A stretch of DNA of 20,578 nt from a virus, in the IMG/VR virus record IMGVR_UViG_3300036466_000329, positions 1 to 20,578 of that record; one strand, 5' to 3'. A program made the position numbers and the translations under genes. Positions 181-11,200 of this stretch are shown one piece after another. Below the pieces are notes generated by a model. That model was not told the origin of the DNA. It did no database searches and worked only from the letters and a program-made list of their open reading frames with translations. Each line of letters begins with the position of its first letter. Position 1 is the first letter of the stretch.

Positions 181-923
181 TTATAAATGTCCTTGTGCCT
201 TTACGAGATTTTCATTGGCAAACTTTTCACCTAAATCCTTGACAGAATAATCACTTCTGAACTTTCTGAATGATTTTTTATCCATATCCTCTAGTTCTCT
301 CCACAGATCTGGAAAATCGTTGTACAAAGAACGTAGCTCACCAATACGGGATAACGGACAGCACCAGCAAGAAACACGACAAAACTTCTCGTATAAACCA
401 CCCCAATCAAGACCTCTTGAATAGCAGTAATGCAAAGCCTCTTTTCCTGTTATTTGCCATTCAATAAGAGGATATTTTATATTTCTACCCTTATTCTTCA
501 AGGCTCTTTCTTTTTCATCAAACGCAATACCGTGAAATTCGGTAATATTGGAAGGGATGAGGTGAGAACCGCCTCTTTTTCGTGGATCGTACCGTGCTGA
601 AGCAAGAACTTTTCCATAAGACTCTTGCTTCACAACGCGGTACACCACCTATTACGAAAATCGGGAAAACCATACCCTCTTTCCCCTTTTCTTTTACCTC
701 TTGTTTTTATATGTTCGCCAAACCAGTAATCAAAGTCGATTTTTACAATCTCAATCTCTATAGGAATGATCATCTCTTGGACTTTTTTTATGTGTTCATA
801 CATTTGCGGAAATTCTTTTGTAGTATCAACACAAATAACCCTATCAACAGGTATTCCTCTTTCCAGCATCATTAACAACATAGCCGTTGAATCTTTTCCG
901 CCGCTAAAGCTAACTATATTCAC
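181..923 (-). pseudogene. PAPS reductase / PP-loop ATPase family protein, split by a -1 frameshift
   Basis: Two overlapping frames encode the two halves of one phosphoadenosine-phosphosulfate-reductase-like protein. The upstream part (923 to 630, GTG start) begins MNIVSFSGGKDSTAML with the PP-loop motif SGGKDS and ends FRNRWCTAL-stop. The downstream part (open from 648, stop at 181) carries the conserved C-terminal signature YPLIEW...CYSRGLDWGGLYEKF.RVSCWCCPL with the paired cysteines. The family's R-x-C-T-x-x-(L/V)-K motif is cut exactly at the junction: ribosomes would need to slip back one base around 631-635 to join A-L to V-K-Q-E. Joined, the protein is about 245 residues, a normal length for phage members. 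Such proteins are linked to sulfate activation or DNA phosphorothioation-like chemistry; the substrate here is unknown. It could be a true inactivating mutation, a recoding event or an assembly error. GTGA couples its start to the stop of the upstream ORF. Confidence 0.8.
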
Positions 924-1060: not shown

Positions 1061-1130
1061 GCTTTATTGTAGGCTTTTATAAATAACCAGAATAGTTTAC
1101 CCTGTTTTACCTTAAGGAATGCAAATATGG

Positions 1131-1206
1131 TACTGGTAGTGGGATTCGAACCCACACCTTTTAGCATTTTAAGTGCTATGCCTCTGCCAAGTTGGGCTAT
1201 ACCAGT
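1131..1206 (-). tRNA. tRNA-Leu(TAA)-type anticodon on a class I (short variable loop) body
   Basis: This 76-nt gene has a 7-bp acceptor (ACTGGTA/TACCAGT), discriminator A and an encoded CCA at 1130-1128. The T arm is GTGGG-TTCGAAT-CCCAC. The anticodon stem TAGCA/TGCTA holds the loop CTTAAAA, giving anticodon TAA (Leu, reads UUA). The variable region is only about 5 nt, whereas bacterial tRNA-Leu normally has a long variable arm, so amino-acid identity by anticodon alone is uncertain. It is the last tRNA of the minus-strand cluster. Confidence 0.9.
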
Positions 1207-2440: not shown

Positions 2441-2786
2441 CTAAGCGGGTTGGTTGGTGCAGATTTTGAGAATGTTGCAAGCAATTAACTTATGAGGAAT
2501 CTGCCCTATTGCCCTCAAACAACTTGCCCAACCCACAAAATAACGGTGGCATCAGCAATTCCTGTTATGCACTTACCAGCACGGCTCGACCGTTATGTAT
2601 TTCTGAATTACGCAGTTGACATACGTCTTACACAAACACAGAACTTTATAACAAAGTTTATCACCCTCTTGTCAGAAGTTTGCGTTCGAGCCTGTGCGAG
2701 TTTCTGTCAAGAAATCATGTAGGCTCAAACAAGTTTTATGTTTGATTTGTTCAGAGGGGTAACTAGTAAATTACCTCTGAGAAAAC
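2441..2786 (-). other. Gene-free region with hairpins
   Basis: I see no supported gene in these 346 bases. They contain a 46-nt unit closed by GCAGATT/AATCTGC (2504-2498 with 2465-2459) that is followed immediately by ACCA, like a tRNA acceptor without arms; an 8-bp inverted repeat ATAACGGT/ACCGTTAT at 2540-2547 and 2589-2596; and several weaker hairpins. Short open frames on both strands lack ribosome binding sites. Confidence 0.4.
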
Positions 2787-2836
2787 TGGTGCCCAATGCA
2801 GGACTCGAACCTGCACGCCATTTCAGGCAGGAGGGC
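2787..2836 (-). pseudogene. 3' half of interrupted tRNA-Leu(TAA)
   Basis: This half supplies loop bases GC, anticodon-stem strand CCTCC, a 15-nt variable arm with stem GCC/GGC, T arm GCAGG-TTCGAGT-CCTGC, acceptor strand ATTGGGC, discriminator A, and CCA at 2789-2787. The acceptor pairs fully (one G-T) with GCCCGAT of the 5' half at 4262-4256. Joined to that half it gives 84 nt plus CCA, the same arm lengths as E. coli tRNA-Leu(UAA). The gene is interrupted by the TnpB element. Confidence 0.85.
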
Positions 2837-3000
2837 GTGAACGTACCCCCGCCTATAGAGGCGGAAGCTTCCTGCTTCAGCGAGAACAGCACCACTATCT
2901 CCAAAGAGTTATGGCGAATTACACTCTCTCCACAGGCGTAGATTCCCGTGCGACCCACGGTACTTTATGAGTTACGCTAGGCAGATATTCGCCTAGCTTC
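2837..3000 (-). ncRNA. Predicted TnpB omega-RNA (reRNA) at the right end
   Basis: In IS200/IS605 elements the guide RNA of TnpB comes from the 3' end of tnpB through the right end, and its guide is the flanking DNA. Here the 140 nt after the tnpB stop contain several hairpins and finish with CCGCCT-CTAT-AGGCGG followed by a GTTCAC end. The guide would then read GCCCTCCTGCC..., the 3' half of the tRNA. The 5' limit is approximate. The assignment rests on family knowledge and position. Confidence 0.6.
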
Positions 3001-4095
3001 TTCTCTAATATTTATTGCAGCGTTCTTGTCACGGTTATGATGACTGCCACACCCAGGGCAATCCCATTCCCGCACAGATAAGTCTTTTGTATCATTGTTC
3101 TGGTAGCCACAGACATGGCACAGCTGACTGCTTGGATACCATTTGTCTATCTTGATAAGTTGCTTACCCTGCCATGCAAGTTTGTATTCCAGCATACTTG
3201 TGAACATGCTCCAGCCATTGTCGGATATGGATTTACCAAAGCTGAAATTGCCACCCTTCTTTCGCTTCGCCATGTCCTTTACGCTAATGTCCTCTATGCC
3301 AATCGCATCATAGCGGTCTGCAAGATAACGAGCTTTCTTATGCAGGAAGTCGCGGCGTTGATTAGCAATTTTCTCATGGAGTACAGCCACACGCAGTCTT
3401 TGTTTATTCCTATTACGGCTCCCTTTTTGTCTCTTGGAGAGTTTTCTTTGTGCCTTGATCAATCTCTTTTCGGCTTCCCGTAAGAAATTTGGATAATCGG
3501 CGTTGTCCTCATCGGAAGCAACATACATCCCGTGCATAGCAAAATCCAATCCAAGAAAATTCTTCGGTATGATGGGAAGTATTTGGTTTTCATACTCCAC
3601 CAAAATACTAATATAGTATTTTCCTGACGGTGTTTTACTTATGGTTACAGTCTTTATGGTGCTATTCTCCATCAATGGACGATGCAGACACAGCTTTACC
3701 CAACCTATTTTCGGCAGCTTGACTTTGTTTCCCTCGATTCTTACAGAGCCATGTTGGTTGTTCGTAGAATATGAAGCATGACCCGCTTTCTTCGACTTGA
3801 AGCGTGGCTTGCCAAAATGCTTCCTATTGCTCCAAAAGTTGTTATACGCCTTGTTCAGGTTTATTTGGGCATTGGCGAGAGCAAGGCTGTCAACCTCTTT
3901 CAGCCAAGGAAACTCTTTCTTGTACTGTGCAGGTGTGTTGTTCAGCCTCTCTCCTGTTTCCTTATAGTAATCAAGACGATCTCCAAGCATCTTGTTATAG
4001 ATGAATCTGGCACTGCCGAAAGTCTTGGCAAACATAATCTTCTGTTCAATTGTCGGGTTGAGTCTATATCGGTATGCCTTATTCACTATAATCAC
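2977..4095 (-). CDS. tnpB: TnpB, RNA-guided RuvC-like nuclease of an IS200/IS605-type element
   Basis: This 372-residue protein begins with the typical TnpB start NKAYRYRLNPT and the helical N-terminal domain. The RuvC parts are intact: LGLDFA (first Asp, about residue 184), IGIEDI (Glu, about 270) and NRDKNAAINI (last Asp, about 358). The zinc-binding cysteines CHVCG and CPGCG flank the last motif, as in the family. TnpB cuts DNA matching the guide part of its omega-RNA next to a short TAM, helping the element survive at its site. The start could be GTG 4095 or, better matched to an AGGTGA ribosome binding site, GTG 4086 (nine bases in). There is no sign of decay, so it is probably active. 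It lies inside a split tRNA-Leu gene. Confidence 0.95.
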   Translation of the reverse strand: MIIVNKAYRYRLNPTIEQKIMFAKTFGSARFIYNKMLGDRLDYYKETGERLNNTPAQYKKEFPWLKEVDSLALANAQINLNKAYNNFWSNRKHFGKPRFKSKKAGHASYSTNNQHGSVRIEGNKVKLPKIGWVKLCLHRPLMENSTIKTVTISKTPSGKYYISILVEYENQILPIIPKNFLGLDFAMHGMYVASDEDNADYPNFLREAEKRLIKAQRKLSKRQKGSRNRNKQRLRVAVLHEKIANQRRDFLHKKARYLADRYDAIGIEDISVKDMAKRKKGGNFSFGKSISDNGWSMFTSMLEYKLAWQGKQLIKIDKWYPSSQLCHVCGYQNNDTKDLSVREWDCPGCGSHHNRDKNAAINIREEARRISA

Positions 4096-4225
4096 CTGCC
4101 TTGATTTTCTATGTATTTACGAATTGTCTCAAACGGAGCAATTATCTGGCTCAACTACTTACGTAAATTCGCCAGACCCGCCTTCATCCCCCACCTTAGA
4201 GGTGGAGGGCTTCTGGCGGATTAGG

Positions 4226-4262
4226 TTAAACCTCGTGTGTCTACCAATTCCACCAATCGGGC
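4226..4262 (-). pseudogene. 5' half of interrupted tRNA-Leu(TAA)
   Basis: Starts GCCCGATTGGTGGAATTGG, very close to bacterial tRNA-Leu: acceptor strand, Leu-type D arm with GGTAGACAC, anticodon-stem strand CGAGG and loop bases TTTAA including anticodon TAA. The sequence then leaves the tRNA pattern because the TnpB element begins. The matching 3' half is at 2836-2787. In the joined stem, pair 27-43 would be C-C, the other four pairs are perfect. Confidence 0.85.
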
Positions 4263-4274
4263 TAAAATCTTTGG

Positions 4275-4355
4275 TGCCTCAGGCAGGATTCGAACCTGCA
4301 CGGATCTCTCCACTTGGTCCTAAGCCAAGCGTGTCTGCCATTCCACCACTGAGGC
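4275..4355 (-). tRNA. tRNA-Leu(TAG)
   Basis: Acceptor GCCTCAG/CTGAGGC, discriminator A and encoded CCA at 4274-4272. Anticodon stem CTTGG/CCAAG encloses CTTAGGA, giving anticodon TAG. A 13-nt variable arm and T arm GCAGG-TTCGAAT-CCTGC follow. It is intact and lies 12 nt upstream of the interrupted tRNA-Leu(TAA). Confidence 0.95.
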
Positions 4356-5991: not shown

Positions 5992-8678
5992 ACTTGCACC
6001 TGCATCAAGAAAGCAAGAAATGATGCTGGGTGCTGATGCCCAAATTACGGTAATTGGTAGATAACTGCCCTGTACACAGGAAACTGTGTATGTGTATCTC
6101 ATTAAAACGGGGAACCCTAAGTGTACACGCATAAGGGAATCCCGTGACTACACAGGCCGAAAAGGAGTAGGCATGAAAAATTTAGGATCTATAGAAGAAA
6201 GACGCATACTTCTATATCCAATAATTTTTCTTGGGAGTAGTTGTAACGACTAGTTCATAAGAACGTAAGACACAAGTAGTTCTTGAATATAAGGACAAGG
6301 TGTTTGAAACATGAGACACCCTAACAAGTAATGTTGAGGGTGAAGAGATAGTCTGAACTGTATAGAAATATACAGCAGGAGAACATTTTAATGTTTTTCC
6401 GGCAGATGCCTTACGAACATCTGTGAACATTTTGGGTGCCGCCGGTTCGGGAAAGTCATACATAATGAATATGATACCTTTGAGGTATGTCGATTGCCCC
6501 AACTTTAGGGGGATTGTCTTCCGAAGGGAAACGACACAGCTTACAGGTGAAGGAGGGATGTGGGATACAGCAACGGAGATATACTCTAAGCTTCCTAAAG
6601 ATATCAGGCCCAAGGTATTAAAACACAACCTGAGAATGATTTTTCCGAATGGGGCAAAAATTAAGTTTTCACACATGGAAAATGATAATGATTTCAGGAA
6701 ACATCAAGGGTTAATTAGTAGCCCCTTGTGTTGGTGACAGCGCAAGCAAACTAACCTAATTCGGTGGAAGCCCAAACATGTAGGATGTGGGTGATACCGA
6801 GCAAGCCACGGCGTGTGTAACGACTAGTTCTTAGGAACGTAGGCCCAAGCGGGTCGAAACGGTTAGCATCTTATTAAGATGAAGATATAGTCTACTCTGC
6901 ATGGAAACATGCAGCGGACACTTTATGTGTCGGGCAGATGTTAGCGCCATCTGTTGAATATTATGTACAATATACCCTGATATGCTTTGATGAGGCAACA
7001 CATTTCACTTTCCAACAAGTTGAATACTTAATGTCACGTATGAGAAGTAAAAGTAAATACACTTCTCGTATGGTTCTGTCGTGGATTACGCGACATGTAT
7101 GGCGAAAGCTGTACTGGCAACTGTGTGAACTCAGGGAAACCTTAGCTGCTGCAATTGGGCAGAGGAAGAAGGCAATCCTGAGCGAAGCCTTCCCATCAGG
7201 GAGGAACGTGCAACGGCCATCGAAAGCGCAACACCTGTTGCAGTGAGTAGAGTACATCACACATGTGTGGTGGAAGCGCACAGCCCCTAACAGGTAAAGC
7301 TGAGGGTGAAGATATGGTCTGAACCTACAGAAATGTAGAAAATATTAACAAATACAGGATAATAGGTAACCCAGATCCTGATAGTTGGCTTTTGCCTATG
7401 GTAGAGTGGTACTTAGATGAACAAGGATACCCAGACCAGTCTAAAGATGGGGTTGTAAGATGGTTCATTAGAAAGAATGGTGAGTTTATCTGGAGGGATA
7501 CAGAAGAAGAAATCTATAGAGATTTTGGAACAGGTCCGTCTATTAGGCCTGTATCCTTTACATTCATCTCTGCAAACATCTATGATAACCCCATTATGAT
7601 AGAGACCAATCCAGACTATCTTGCAATGCTTGAAGGCCTTAACGAGGTTGATAAGGCAAGATTACTACACGGTTAACAGTGGCCGCATATAGTAGCGATA
7701 TTATATGAAAAATTGTGTGAATTCAGGGGACACCTAAACAGGCAACGCTTTGTGCTGTAGGCAATCCTGAGCGAAGCCTTCCCATCGGGAAGGAACGTGC
7801 AACGACCATCCTGAGTAGGAGTAGGGCCAAGCGGTTCCGAAGCGCACAACATCTCATTGAGATGATGATATGGTCTGATCTATATGGAAACATATAGCTG
7901 ACACGGTTTATATTACGTGTCGGGCACGTCTTAGCGAGGCGTGCTGAACAAAATGAACTGGTATGCTAGACCACAGGATAGTGGATACTTTAAAAGAGAT
8001 TGGGTGCAACGTTGTGTTGAAGCACCTGCTGACACAAAGTGGGTACGTGCTTGGGATAAAGCGGCTACAGAGCCGAGTGACACAAACCCCTCACCTGACT
8101 ATACAGCTTGTATAAAGATGGGGAAAGATAGAGCAGGAAACTACTACATTGCTGGCGATTTTGTAGAAGAAAACTATGATGAAGACAGTAAGACATATGG
8201 CAGGTTCAGGAAAAGAGCAGGCGCAAGAGATAATATCATCTTGAAACAGGCACTTGCTGATGGCCATGATTGTGAGGTTGTTCTTCCTCAAGACCCCGCT
8301 GCTGCGGGTAAGACGGAATACATTGAATCAGCAAAGAAATTAATAGAGCAAGGTATCCGTTGCAGAAAGGATGTGGTTGCATCTAACAAATCTAAGCTAA
8401 TAAAGTTTTCACCGTTTTCTGCATCATGCGAGAATGGGCTTGTTTACATCTTGGATGCAACATTTACTCAAAAAACATTGAATGCATTTTATACAGAGCT
8501 TGAATCTTTCAACGGAGAAGCAAGCACAAGAACACGGAAGGATGATTGGGTTGACTGTACAGCAATGGCATTCAACTACTTATCTAAGAAGAGTGTGCTT
8601 CCTAACTTTACACTAGATGAGTGGGGAGGTACATCGGTAAAAACACCCCTCTCAATTGTGAGGGCCAACTTTCATTAA
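5984..8678 (+). CDS. terL: Terminase large subunit, five exons split by four group I introns
   Basis: Coding exons are 5984-6058, 6435-6711, 6966-7082, 7366-7673 and 7956-8678. They total 1500 nt, giving a 499-residue protein with no internal stop. Exon 1 ends ...ITVIG and exon 2 restores the Walker A region as GGAAGSGKS. Exon 2 ends KHQ-G, and exon 3 continues QYTLICFDEATHF with Walker B FDE. The exon 3/4 junction restores VLSCNPDPDSW, a hallmark of this TerL family. The exon 4/5 junction restores LLHGNWYARP. Exon 5 holds the RuvC-like nuclease (RAWDKAAT near its start; DDWVDCTAM near its end). TerL is the ATP-driven packaging motor and the nuclease that cuts the concatemer. Every exon ends in T and every intron in G, as group I splicing requires. 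Start ATG 5984 has AGGAGG upstream. Confidence 0.93.
6059..6434 (+). ncRNA. Group I intron 1 of terL
   Basis: The 376-nt intron lies between the two glycine codons of the Walker A motif (phase 0). P7 strands CGACTA (about 6247-6252) and GATAGTC (about 6347-6353) pair as in group I cores. P9 is CTGTATA-GAAA-TATACAG with a GNRA loop, and a CAGATG/CATCTG hairpin lies near the 3' end. The last intron base is G (6434). A 26-codon ORF inside is listed separately; there is no full endonuclease. Confidence 0.9.
6173..6253 (+). other. 26-codon ORF inside terL intron 1
   Basis: ATG 6173 follows AAGGAG with a 5-nt gap and the frame runs to TAG 6253, inside the P7 strand. The product, MKNLGSIEERRILLYPI..., has no endonuclease motif. 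It may be the stub left after loss of a homing-endonuclease gene, or chance. Confidence 0.3.
6712..6965 (+). ncRNA. Group I intron 2 of terL
   Basis: A 254-nt mini-intron splits a Leu codon (T|TA) just before Walker B (phase 1). The core has CGACTAG (about 6820) and GATATAGTC (about 6886), a P9 CTGCATG-GAAA-CATGCAG, then GACAC/GTGTC and CAGATG/CATCTG hairpins near the 3' end. It contains no ORF. The P7 strand region CGACTAGTTCTTAGGAACGT is identical in intron 5. Confidence 0.92.
7083..7365 (+). ncRNA. Group I intron 3 of terL
   Basis: The 283-nt intron splits the Cys codon (T|GT) of the conserved CNPDPDSW motif (phase 1). It carries AACTCAGGGAAACC (P3/P4), GGCAATCCTGAGCGAAGCC, P7 strands GGCCAT and ATGGTC, and P9 CTACA-GAAA-TGTAG. 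The core is close to intron 4 and unlike introns 1, 2 and 5. It contains no endonuclease ORF. Confidence 0.92.
7674..7955 (+). ncRNA. Group I intron 4 of terL
   Basis: The 282-nt intron follows ...LLHG and precedes NWYARP (phase 0). It shares GGCAATCCTGAGCGAAGCC and GGAACGTGCAACG with intron 3. P7 is GACCAT/ATGGTC and P9 is CTATATG-GAAA-CATATAG, followed by GACACG/CGTGTC and GCACG/CGTGC hairpins. No ORF. Confidence 0.92.
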
Positions 8679-8689
8679 GGAGGGCACTG

Positions 8690-11200
8690 GTGGTAAAAGA
8701 GGGCAGCAAGTCTGCTACAAAAACAACCACTTCTAAGAAATTCAACCTATCTGAAAAAGGGTATATAGGACTTAATCAGGTAAATGGCCGCATTTATGAG
8801 GAAAGTCGTGATGCTTTAAGGTTCCCTAATGCGACAAAGACCTTTAAAAAGATGTCCTATGATCCTGTAATATCCGCTGCCAATTCCACAATAGATCTTA
8901 TGATAGGACGTGTGCAGTGGTTCTTCGATGTTCCTGATACAGCCAGCGATAAGGCAAAAGAAGCAGCAGAATTTTTAAATTACTGTATGAACAGCATGGA
9001 TATGGGAACATGGGAAGATTTCATTACTGAGTGTGGTAGCTATAGACGTTACGGCTTTCACATAGCGGAAAAAGTCTACAACAAGGTTAAAGAAGGGAAG
9101 TGGAAGGGTAAGTATAAGTGGAAAAAACTACCAACAAGAGCACAAGACACCATTGAAGAGTGGGTCTTTAGTAAGGATAACAGGGAGCTTTTAGGCTTAA
9201 AACAGTCAACAAGAAATGTGACACACCCGCTGGCATTGAAAAGCCTTACAGGCTATATAGAAATACCAAGGTCAAAATTCATACATTTTGCCTACGACGG
9301 GTACAGAGATAACCCAGAGGGAAGAAGTCCGTTGGTTGGTGCCTACATCCCTTGGACATATAAAACACTTATAGAGGAATATGAGGCTGTTGGTGTGGCC
9401 AAAGACCTTGGGGGTATTCCTCTTATAGGTGTGGATGTTGATTACCTTGCTAAAGCACAGGAGAACCCTGCATCAGCAGAAGCCGCTGTTGTAGAGGCAC
9501 TGAAGCGTGATGCAGCAAATATGCATTCAGGTGATCAATCCTACATGCTCCTTCCTCTTGCTTACACACAGGATGGGGGGAAACCACTCTTTGATTTTAA
9601 ACTTGTTGGGGTGGATGGTGGTTTGCAAATAAGCCACGGTAGATGGAAACATCTATAAAAATAAACCTATCTAATTGCTGGGAAGTCTTGTTAGGCTTAA
9701 TGTACAATACAGAGTGGTGACACTCTGCGATACTGTAAAAATCATTAAGATAGAGATAATCAGCAGCTAAGAACCTAGAAAACCGAAGATCAGTAGGGAG
9801 AGAAGAAATGGAAGAAGAGTTTGTACCAAGTCGTAAATATCCGCCGTTCGCTGCAAATGCAAGCGGACAGATAAAGAATTTAAAAACCGGTAAGGTTAGA
9901 AAACAAACCGTTGCTGCAAACGGGTATGCTTATATTGGCACAAGACAAGGGCTTATTCTGGCACACAGAATTGTGGCTGACTGCTTTATTCCTAACGAGG
10001 AAAACCTAGAGCAGATTAATCATAAGAATGGTGTAAAAACAGATAACAGGGTTGAGAACCTAGAGTGGGTTTCAAGGTCTGAGAACATGAAACACGCAGC
10101 CAGAAACAACCTTCTTGTGTGGAACGGAAAAAGCGGTGAGGAAAGCAACCTCACTAAACATGAAGATTCGCTTGTACACGCTATATGCGCTGATCTACAG
10201 ACAGGTCTCAGAAACAAAGACATAGCGGATAAATACAACCTTAAGACCTCTTACATAAAAGAGATTAGGTCTGGAAGGTGTAGAAAAGATATCTCTGTGC
10301 AATACAGCTTTAGAAAAAGAAAAGATAGTCTTTCTTATGAAACCATTGTTTGGGTTTGTAAGCAGATTGCAGCCGGACTATCTACGAGACAGATTCTGGA
10401 TAGGAGTACAAACAAAAGAATAACAAAGGATACAATTAAAAACATCAGATTAAAAAGATCTTATGCTGAAGTGTCCTCTTCCTATTTCTAGGTTAAAGTT
10501 CAACGACTAGTTCTTAGGAACGTAGGCCAGAAGTCTGGCCCAAACGGTAGGGTTCCTCCAGTGCGGCTGAGGAATAAGATATAGTCTAGTCTGTATGGAG
10601 ACATGCAGGTGCAGGTAAAGCTGCCGGAAAGGTCTAACGAGCCTTTTTGAATACTAAACGGGAAAGCAATATAATACTGATGATATTATAAAAAGAAAGC
10701 AGAATGAAATATTAATCTTGTATCTTGCTGATGTTTTAAAGCTTGGTACAGACACGCACGGCAGTTTTGCGCTTGCTGATAGCAAGAATGCTTTACTCGG
10801 CTTTGCTATTGACCGCCATTTGAAGTTTATAGCTCAAACATTAAAAAGAGATTTGGTTGTACAAACCCTGAACATAAATGGTTTCGATCTCGATAAAAGC
10901 GAAATTCCCACTCTCCAACACACAGAGCTTGACAGTGTAGATATAGATGTCTTTTCTAAGTTTATCCAGCGTGTTGCTGCTGTTGGATACCTGCCGCGAA
11001 CACCGGAGCTTATCAACGAGGTTCTCAAGAAGGGGGACTTCAAATATCGTATAGATGAAGAGATGAGTAACGAGGAGTTTGATAAACTCTTTCCTGAGGC
11101 TGTTTCAAGATCGGGTGATGGGATGAAGAGTGCAGGAGAAGGAACGTCAAACAAGGTGGGTGGTGCAGATAACAGTACGTCAAACAAGGAGAACGCTTAA
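8690..11200 (+). CDS. Portal protein (DUF935-like), two exons around a group I intron
   Basis: Coding exons are 8690-9622 and 10661-11200, 1473 nt in all, giving 490 residues. I chose GTG 8690 (MVKEGSKSATKTT...) because AAGGAGG ends 6 nt before it. The earlier in-frame ATG at 8621 lies inside terL and has no ribosome binding site. The protein resembles Mu gp29/DUF935 portals: an N-terminal region with YDPVISAANSTIDLMI, a wing with the HFAYDGYRDNPEGRSPL motif near residue 205, then KLVGVDGG|GKQYNTDDIIKRKQNEIL... where the intron is removed, and a charged, low-complexity tail (STSNKENA). The portal forms the dodecameric vertex ring through which TerL packages DNA. It follows the terL stop by 11 nt and is followed directly by the protease gene. 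Confidence 0.9.
9623..10660 (+). ncRNA. Group I intron of the portal gene, with homing endonuclease
   Basis: The 1038-nt intron lies after VDGG and before GKQY (phase 0; exon ends in T, intron ends in G 10660). The 3' core reads CGACTAGTTCTTAGGAACGT (10503-10522), P7 partner GATATAGTC (about 10578), and P9 CTGTATG-GAGA-CATGCAG. An HNH gene fills the middle, between the 5' core and P7. The 3' core is shared with terL introns 1 and 2. Confidence 0.92.
9808..10491 (+). CDS. HNH homing endonuclease (I-HmuI-like), intron-encoded
   Basis: The 227-residue protein starts at ATG 9808 after GGGAGA. An N-terminal NUMOD4-like strand region (FAANASGQIKNLKTGKVRKQ) leads into an HNH nuclease, with AHRIVADCFIPN (about 50-61), then INHKNGVKTDNRVENLEWVS (about 70-89, with catalytic His and Asn residues) and SENMKHA. 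The C-terminal half holds helix-turn-helix-like DNA-binding segments (RNKDIADKYNLKTSYIKEIRSG and a second, weaker copy). Such enzymes nick intronless alleles of the host gene, here the portal gene, to spread the intron. It appears intact. It is the only full endonuclease for the five introns. Confidence 0.93.
   Translation: MEEEFVPSRKYPPFAANASGQIKNLKTGKVRKQTVAANGYAYIGTRQGLILAHRIVADCFIPNEENLEQINHKNGVKTDNRVENLEWVSRSENMKHAARNNLLVWNGKSGEESNLTKHEDSLVHAICADLQTGLRNKDIADKYNLKTSYIKEIRSGRCRKDISVQYSFRKRKDSLSYETIVWVCKQIAAGLSTRQILDRSTNKRITKDTIKNIRLKRSYAEVSSSYF

What the first reader, a model, noticed from the sequence alone, without database searches (positions are those of the whole stretch)
2787..4262. 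TnpB element sits in the anticodon loop of tRNA-Leu(TAA), and its guide would be the tRNA itself
The 5' half (4262-4226) and 3' half (2836-2787) join into an 84-nt tRNA-Leu with a paired acceptor and the arm lengths of E. coli tRNA-Leu(UAA). The element follows TTTAA, a plausible TAM made of the anticodon loop. The RNA guide at the right end would read GCCCTCC..., so TnpB should cut intact copies of the same tRNA gene next to TTTAA, in sister phages or host. That makes a conserved tRNA loop the homing site.
Basis: partly seen in the sequence, partly recalled or inferred. Interest (0 to 1): 0.88.

Follow-up and report, generated by a model that had tools for sequence, protein, structure and literature searches.

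The report
Transposon nuclease splits a phage tRNA
A phage that probably infects Selenomonas-type bacteria carries a small mobile element with an RNA-guided DNA-cutting protein exactly in the middle of a tRNA gene, and the element's predicted guide matches the intact tRNA gene of a sister phage, so it should cut that gene and be copied into it; the parts are of a known kind, the address is unusual.

Summary
Window 4262-4226 plus 2836-2787 (minus strand) join into an 87-nt tRNA-Leu(UAA); shifting the junction by 1-2 bases destroys it. A sister phage carries this tRNA uninterrupted, 87/87 identical. The 1,389-bp insert is an IS200/IS605 element that has lost tnpA. It keeps an intact tnpB (RuvC D184/E268/D356), a conserved omegaRNA with covarying stems, and the family's ends: TTTAA|CCTAA...GTTCAC|guide. 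In relatives 26 of 33 left junctions are exactly TTTAA. The predicted guide, GCCCTCCTGCC..., next to TTAA, has one full match among 11 genomes and records searched: the sister's intact tRNA. Full-length copies with tnpA live in Selenomonadales; the closest is Mitsuokella jalaludinii (96%).

Host tRNA-Leu(UAA) is not a target (CTTAA loop, 5-6 of 20 guide matches). The family is not tRNA-seeking: 1 of 20 empty sites is a tRNA. However, the sister carries a 98%-identical copy right after TTTAA in a second tRNA-Leu half, so this lineage sits in two neighbouring anticodon loops; that copy's tnpB looks under relaxed selection. Cleavage and homing remain inferred. The tRNA is broken, not spliced: no intron was found.

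The parts
4226..4262 (-). 5' half of tRNA-Leu(UAA), positions 1-36, ending in TTTAA (U32-A36), which is also the insertion motif / predicted TAM (4226-4230)
   Evidence: intact copy at L003:1476-1562
4147..4225 (-). Left end of the element (CCTAATCC..., with an imperfect palindrome), conserved in the family
4096..4146 (-). Scar of the lost tnpA: last tnpA codons and the stretch before tnpB; the deletion is identical in the sister phage's copy
2977..4095 (-). tnpB, 372 aa, HTH + OrfB_IS605 + TNB domains, RuvC D184/E268/D356 and zinc ribbon intact
2837..2976 (-). Right end and omegaRNA scaffold, ending in GTTCAC; 35 consensus pairs in relatives, 9 with double changes; weak RAGATH-18 match at 2869-2936
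2817..2836 (-). Predicted omegaRNA guide GCCCTCCTGCCTGAAATGGC, which is the start of the tRNA 3' half
   Evidence: position after GTTCAC and the SisTnpB7 rule; full match beside TTAA only in the sister phage
2787..2836 (-). 3' half of tRNA-Leu(UAA) including CCA
4272..4355 (-). Intact neighbouring tRNA-Leu(UAG), upstream in the same tRNA cluster

Best explanation
An IS605-type element from a Selenomonadales bacterium lost tnpA and entered this phage lineage. It was inserted directly 3' of TTTAA, which here is U32-U33-U34-A35-A36 of a phage tRNA-Leu(UAA) (shown: ends, motif, empty site); the move needed TnpA in trans, or preceded the loss (inferred). The insertion inactivates the tRNA (inferred: no intron found). 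Because the omegaRNA runs from the element into its 3' flank, the guide is the 3' half of the tRNA (predicted from position). TnpB loaded with it should cut the intact allele, TTTAA+GCCCTCCTGCC..., carried by sister phages in a mixed infection, and recombination through the shared tRNA cluster would copy the element in: homing, or a gene drive, at a tRNA (inferred). The interrupted copy is protected because GTTCAC stands in place of the TAM. The family is a TTTAA generalist; the tRNA loop is a tolerated site that has the motif built in.
For: Exact empty site in a sister phage; sister identity by 127-nt contig overlap and 94-97% DNA identity. Conserved ends and TTTAA in 26 of 33 junctions. Intact catalytic residues. 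Covarying omegaRNA. Guide + TTAA full match only in the sister's tRNA; own copy reads TCAC. tnpA present in full-length bacterial copies and deleted identically in both phage copies. SisTnpB7 precedent for TTTAA and a guide after UUCAC; TnpB gene drive of IS elements shown in plasmids (PMC11870625, abstract).
Against: No cleavage, omegaRNA or co-infection data. dN/dS between the two phage copies is 0.66 against 0.14 to the nearest bacterial copy, with the excess on the sister's branch, so long-term selection on tnpB in these phages is doubtful. The sister with the intact allele has kept it while carrying an element next door. No phage yet found that shows the converted product in several independent lineages.
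Confidence: 0.6

Rival explanations
1. A plain dead-end insertion: a tnpA-less IS copy landed on a TTTAA that happened to lie in a dispensable phage tRNA. TnpB may be active in principle but plays no part in keeping or spreading the element here.
For: The family inserts after TTTAA anywhere; no tnpA; relaxed selection between the phage copies; the host should supply tRNA-Leu(UAA) itself.
Against: tnpB, omegaRNA and ends are intact in the window copy, the target allele circulates in a close relative, and the lineage occupies a second tRNA-Leu loop in the sister.
Confidence: 0.3
2. The insert is an intron-like element (IStron or similar) that is removed from the tRNA transcript, so the tRNA still works.
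For: The anticodon loop of tRNA-Leu(UAA) is a classic group I intron site (general knowledge); this phage has several group I introns elsewhere.
Against: No group I or other intron match inside the element even at a permissive threshold; only 130 nt precede tnpB; every boundary is that of an ordinary IS605 element; the sister's copy has no tRNA 3' half to be joined.
Confidence: 0.03
3. TnpB was taken over by the phage for another job (regulation or attack on host genes), with the tRNA site as a mere parking place.
For: tnpA is gone while tnpB stays open in two related phages.
Against: RuvC residues are intact, unlike TldR-type regulators (general knowledge); the guide has no good target in 8 host-group genomes; tnpA-less copies also occur in bacteria; selection looks relaxed.
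Confidence: 0.05

Closest known systems
IS200/IS605 elements with TTTAA target and TnpB, e.g. the IS605-type TnpB7 of Sulfolobus islandicus (PMC11043419)
   Same: TTTAA TAM; omegaRNA scaffold ending in UUCAC with the guide directly behind it; TnpB with RuvC and zinc ribbon
   Different: Here tnpA is deleted, the carrier is a phage, and the insertion site is a tRNA anticodon loop
TnpB gene drive of IS elements in plasmids (PMC11870625)
   Same: TnpB reprogrammed by its own insertion site cuts copies that lack the IS
   Different: There experimental and with whole IS elements; here inferred, between phage genomes, with a tnpA-less element
IStrons (group I intron + IS; PMC4227781)
   Same: IS605/IS607-type mobile part inside genes
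   Different: No ribozyme found here, so the host gene is not rescued
Group I introns in tRNA-Leu(UAA) (general knowledge)
   Same: Interrupt the anticodon loop of the same tRNA
   Different: They interrupt the anticodon and self-splice; this insert lies between positions 36 and 37 and carries no ribozyme

Membership tests
IS200/IS605 element, tnpB-only derivative | TnpB with HTH, OrfB_IS605 and TNB domains and RuvC D-E-D | tested here: met
IS200/IS605 element, tnpB-only derivative | Insertion 3' of a fixed short motif without target duplication; conserved ends in relatives | tested here: met
   TTTAA in 26 of 33 left junctions, GTTCAC right end, exact empty site
IS200/IS605 element, tnpB-only derivative | HuH TnpA in full-length relatives | tested here: met
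   tnpA with HxH in Mitsuokella, Schwartzia, Selenomonas copies; deleted in the window
IS200/IS605 element, tnpB-only derivative | Structured omegaRNA at the right end | tested here: met
   35 consensus pairs, 9 with double changes
TnpB homing / gene drive | Intact allele with TAM and guide match exists, own copy protected | tested here: met
TnpB homing / gene drive | TnpB cuts the intact allele and the element is copied in | not testable with these tools
   needs a cleavage and a co-infection assay
TnpB homing / gene drive | tnpB kept under purifying selection in the phage lineage | tested here: inconclusive
   dN/dS 0.66 from 18 changes, excess on the sister's branch only
IStron / intron | Group I ribozyme core in the element | tested here: not met
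TldR-type regulator | Loss of RuvC catalytic residues | tested here: not met

The most novel reading that the evidence does not exclude
TTTAA-type TnpB elements have a standing niche in phage tRNA-Leu(UAA) genes: the anticodon loop UUUAA supplies the TAM and the tRNA 3' half the guide, so the element homes between phages at a site that tRNA function keeps constant. The copies in two neighbouring tRNA-Leu loops of sister phages would be two such events.
Probability: 0.2. Interest if true: 0.75.

Novelty: new member of a known kind. Interest (0 to 1): 0.5.

Why it matters
It is a natural pair of interrupted and intact alleles for a phage TnpB element, with the predicted target in hand, so homing by an RNA-guided nuclease between phages can be tested directly. 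It also points out that the anticodon loop of tRNA-Leu(UAA) is a ready-made TAM for every TTTAA-type TnpB: in one capped scan, 57 of 120 hits had such a loop in a tRNA-like context followed by AA or GC. No held paper mentions TnpB together with an anticodon loop.

Tried and rejected
Host as target: tRNA-Leu(UAA) of six Selenomonadales genomes has CTTAA and 5-6/20 guide matches; no good guide match in 8 genomes. Intron/IStron: no ribozyme. Guide plus TAM in viral contigs: seven hits, only the sister's is a tRNA, the other six are chance 16-mers. Pattern of a tRNA-Leu loop followed by this left end: none, but the pattern could not see the sister's copy because of its G-to-A change in the D loop. 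TnpB elements of eight phage records: none clearly in an anticodon loop. BLAST of the whole tRNA against host genomes: nothing, uninformative by itself.

Full report
WHAT IS THERE. On the minus strand, 4262-4226 and 2836-2787 are the two halves of one tRNA gene. Joined at exactly 4226/2836 they give an 87-base tRNA-Leu with anticodon TAA and loop TTTAAGC; moving the right junction by one or two bases spoils it. The sister phage contig IMGVR_UViG_3300042267_000152 holds the same 87 bases in one piece (L003:1476-1562). It is a true sister: the end of that contig overlaps by 127 identical bases with contig 3300042267_000191, and the latter is 94-97% identical to the window's DNA over most of the terminase-to-tail region, with an identical portal segment of 259 residues.

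THE INSERT. Between the halves lie 1,389 bases with one 372-aa TnpB (Pfam PF12323, PF01385, PF07282). It matches ISDra2 TnpB (8h1j) over nearly its whole length and has the RuvC residues D184, E268 and D356 and the zinc-ribbon cysteines. Relatives in bacterial genomes are Selenomonadales above all: Mitsuokella jalaludinii 96%, then Selenomonas, Schwartzia, Megasphaera. The phage therefore probably infects such a bacterium (inference). Relatives share the ends. Directly before the left end (CCTAA in most) stands TTTAA in 26 of 33 distinct junctions; the right end is GTTCAC in nearly all copies that could be read, and the DNA beyond differs from copy to copy. Full-length bacterial copies carry a tnpA with an HxH motif; the window copy keeps only its last codons, and the sister's copy has the identical deletion.

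THE RNA. The last 140 bases form a conserved RNA: 35 consensus pairs, nine with changes on both sides that keep the pair, and a weak match to RAGATH-18 (27 bits, below the 44.9 cut-off), the scaffold RNA of IS607 TnpBs (PMC11061315). By the rule shown for SisTnpB7 (TAM TTTAA, guide directly after UUCAC; PMC11043419), the guide starts at 2836 and reads GCCCTCCTGCCTGAAATGGC. Among the window, the two sister contigs and eight host-group genomes, the only full match next to TTAA is the sister's intact tRNA; the window's own copy reads TCAC there and is safe.

THE SISTER'S OWN ELEMENT. Next to the intact tRNA the sister has a second tRNA-Leu 5' half (AAGGGATTTAA, with G-to-A in the D loop) followed directly by a copy of the same element. 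The tnpB genes of the two phages are 98.4% identical and group together with full support. Behind that copy no tRNA 3' half follows but AATCTGCACC, which in the window lies about 320 bases beyond the tRNA, after CTCAA. The stretch AAAATC, which the uninterrupted second tRNA loop would share with that place, suggests a deletion by short homology (inference). So one element lineage occupies the anticodon loops of two neighbouring tRNA-Leu genes in two sister phages, which needs a move, presumably by TnpA in trans. Chance is not excluded: the window's tRNA region offers about six TTTAA sites and the sister's about 18.

SELECTION. Between the two phage copies 13 of 18 changes alter the protein (dN/dS 0.66), against 0.14-0.17 to the Mitsuokella copy and 0.03-0.12 for the other pairs computed. 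A binomial test against the window-Mitsuokella proportion gives P=0.003, with the excess on the sister's branch (9 of 11, P=0.004) and none shown on the window's (3 of 5). Short time scales inflate such ratios. The reading is that the sister's copy, whose guide no longer matches a TAM-bearing site, may be decaying, while the window's copy cannot be judged.

WHAT DOES NOT HOLD. The host tRNA-Leu(UAA) is not a target: in six genomes its loop is CTTAA and it matches the guide at 5-6 of 20 bases. The family is not tRNA-specific: of 20 copies with both ends readable, only the window's empty site folds as a tRNA. There is no recognisable intron in the element, so the tRNA is most likely broken; the host's own gene can read UUA, and TTA is a minor leucine codon in the window's structural genes (23 of 234).

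VERDICT. Cutting and homing are predictions. It is a new member of a known kind at a striking address.

Noticed in passing
window 6702-7897: Three group I introns (Rfam RF00028, 71-93 bits) lie within the terminase large-subunit gene; the sister phage L014 has them too.
   Followed up: partly
window 9659-10717; L014:6588-8061: The portal gene is interrupted by an insert with an HNH endonuclease (9808-10491) and a weak group I intron match (29 bits); the sister has an intron there without most of the HNH gene, and a further group I intron about 0.4 kb upstream in the same gene.
   Followed up: partly
window 1128-1206: ARAGORN calls a second tRNA-Leu(UAA), but it lacks the long variable arm of leucine tRNAs; its real identity is unclear.
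   Followed up: no
window 2470-2786: About 318 bases with inverted repeats stand between the tRNA 3' half and the next block shared with the sister; they are absent there.
   Followed up: no
window 181-923: A PAPS-reductase-like gene appears split over two frames on the minus strand, a possible frameshift.
   Followed up: no
L190:1300-1500 (Enterococcus phage EFP01): A TnpB gene with a truncated tnpA is fused directly to what looks like the 5' half of a tRNA-His, apparently through a short shared stretch TGGAA: another phage tRNA broken next to a TnpB element.
   Followed up: partly
L004, L009, L010, L011: A tnpA-less relative of the element (89% protein identity) sits after TTTAA at one and the same non-tRNA site in four other viral contigs.
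   Followed up: partly
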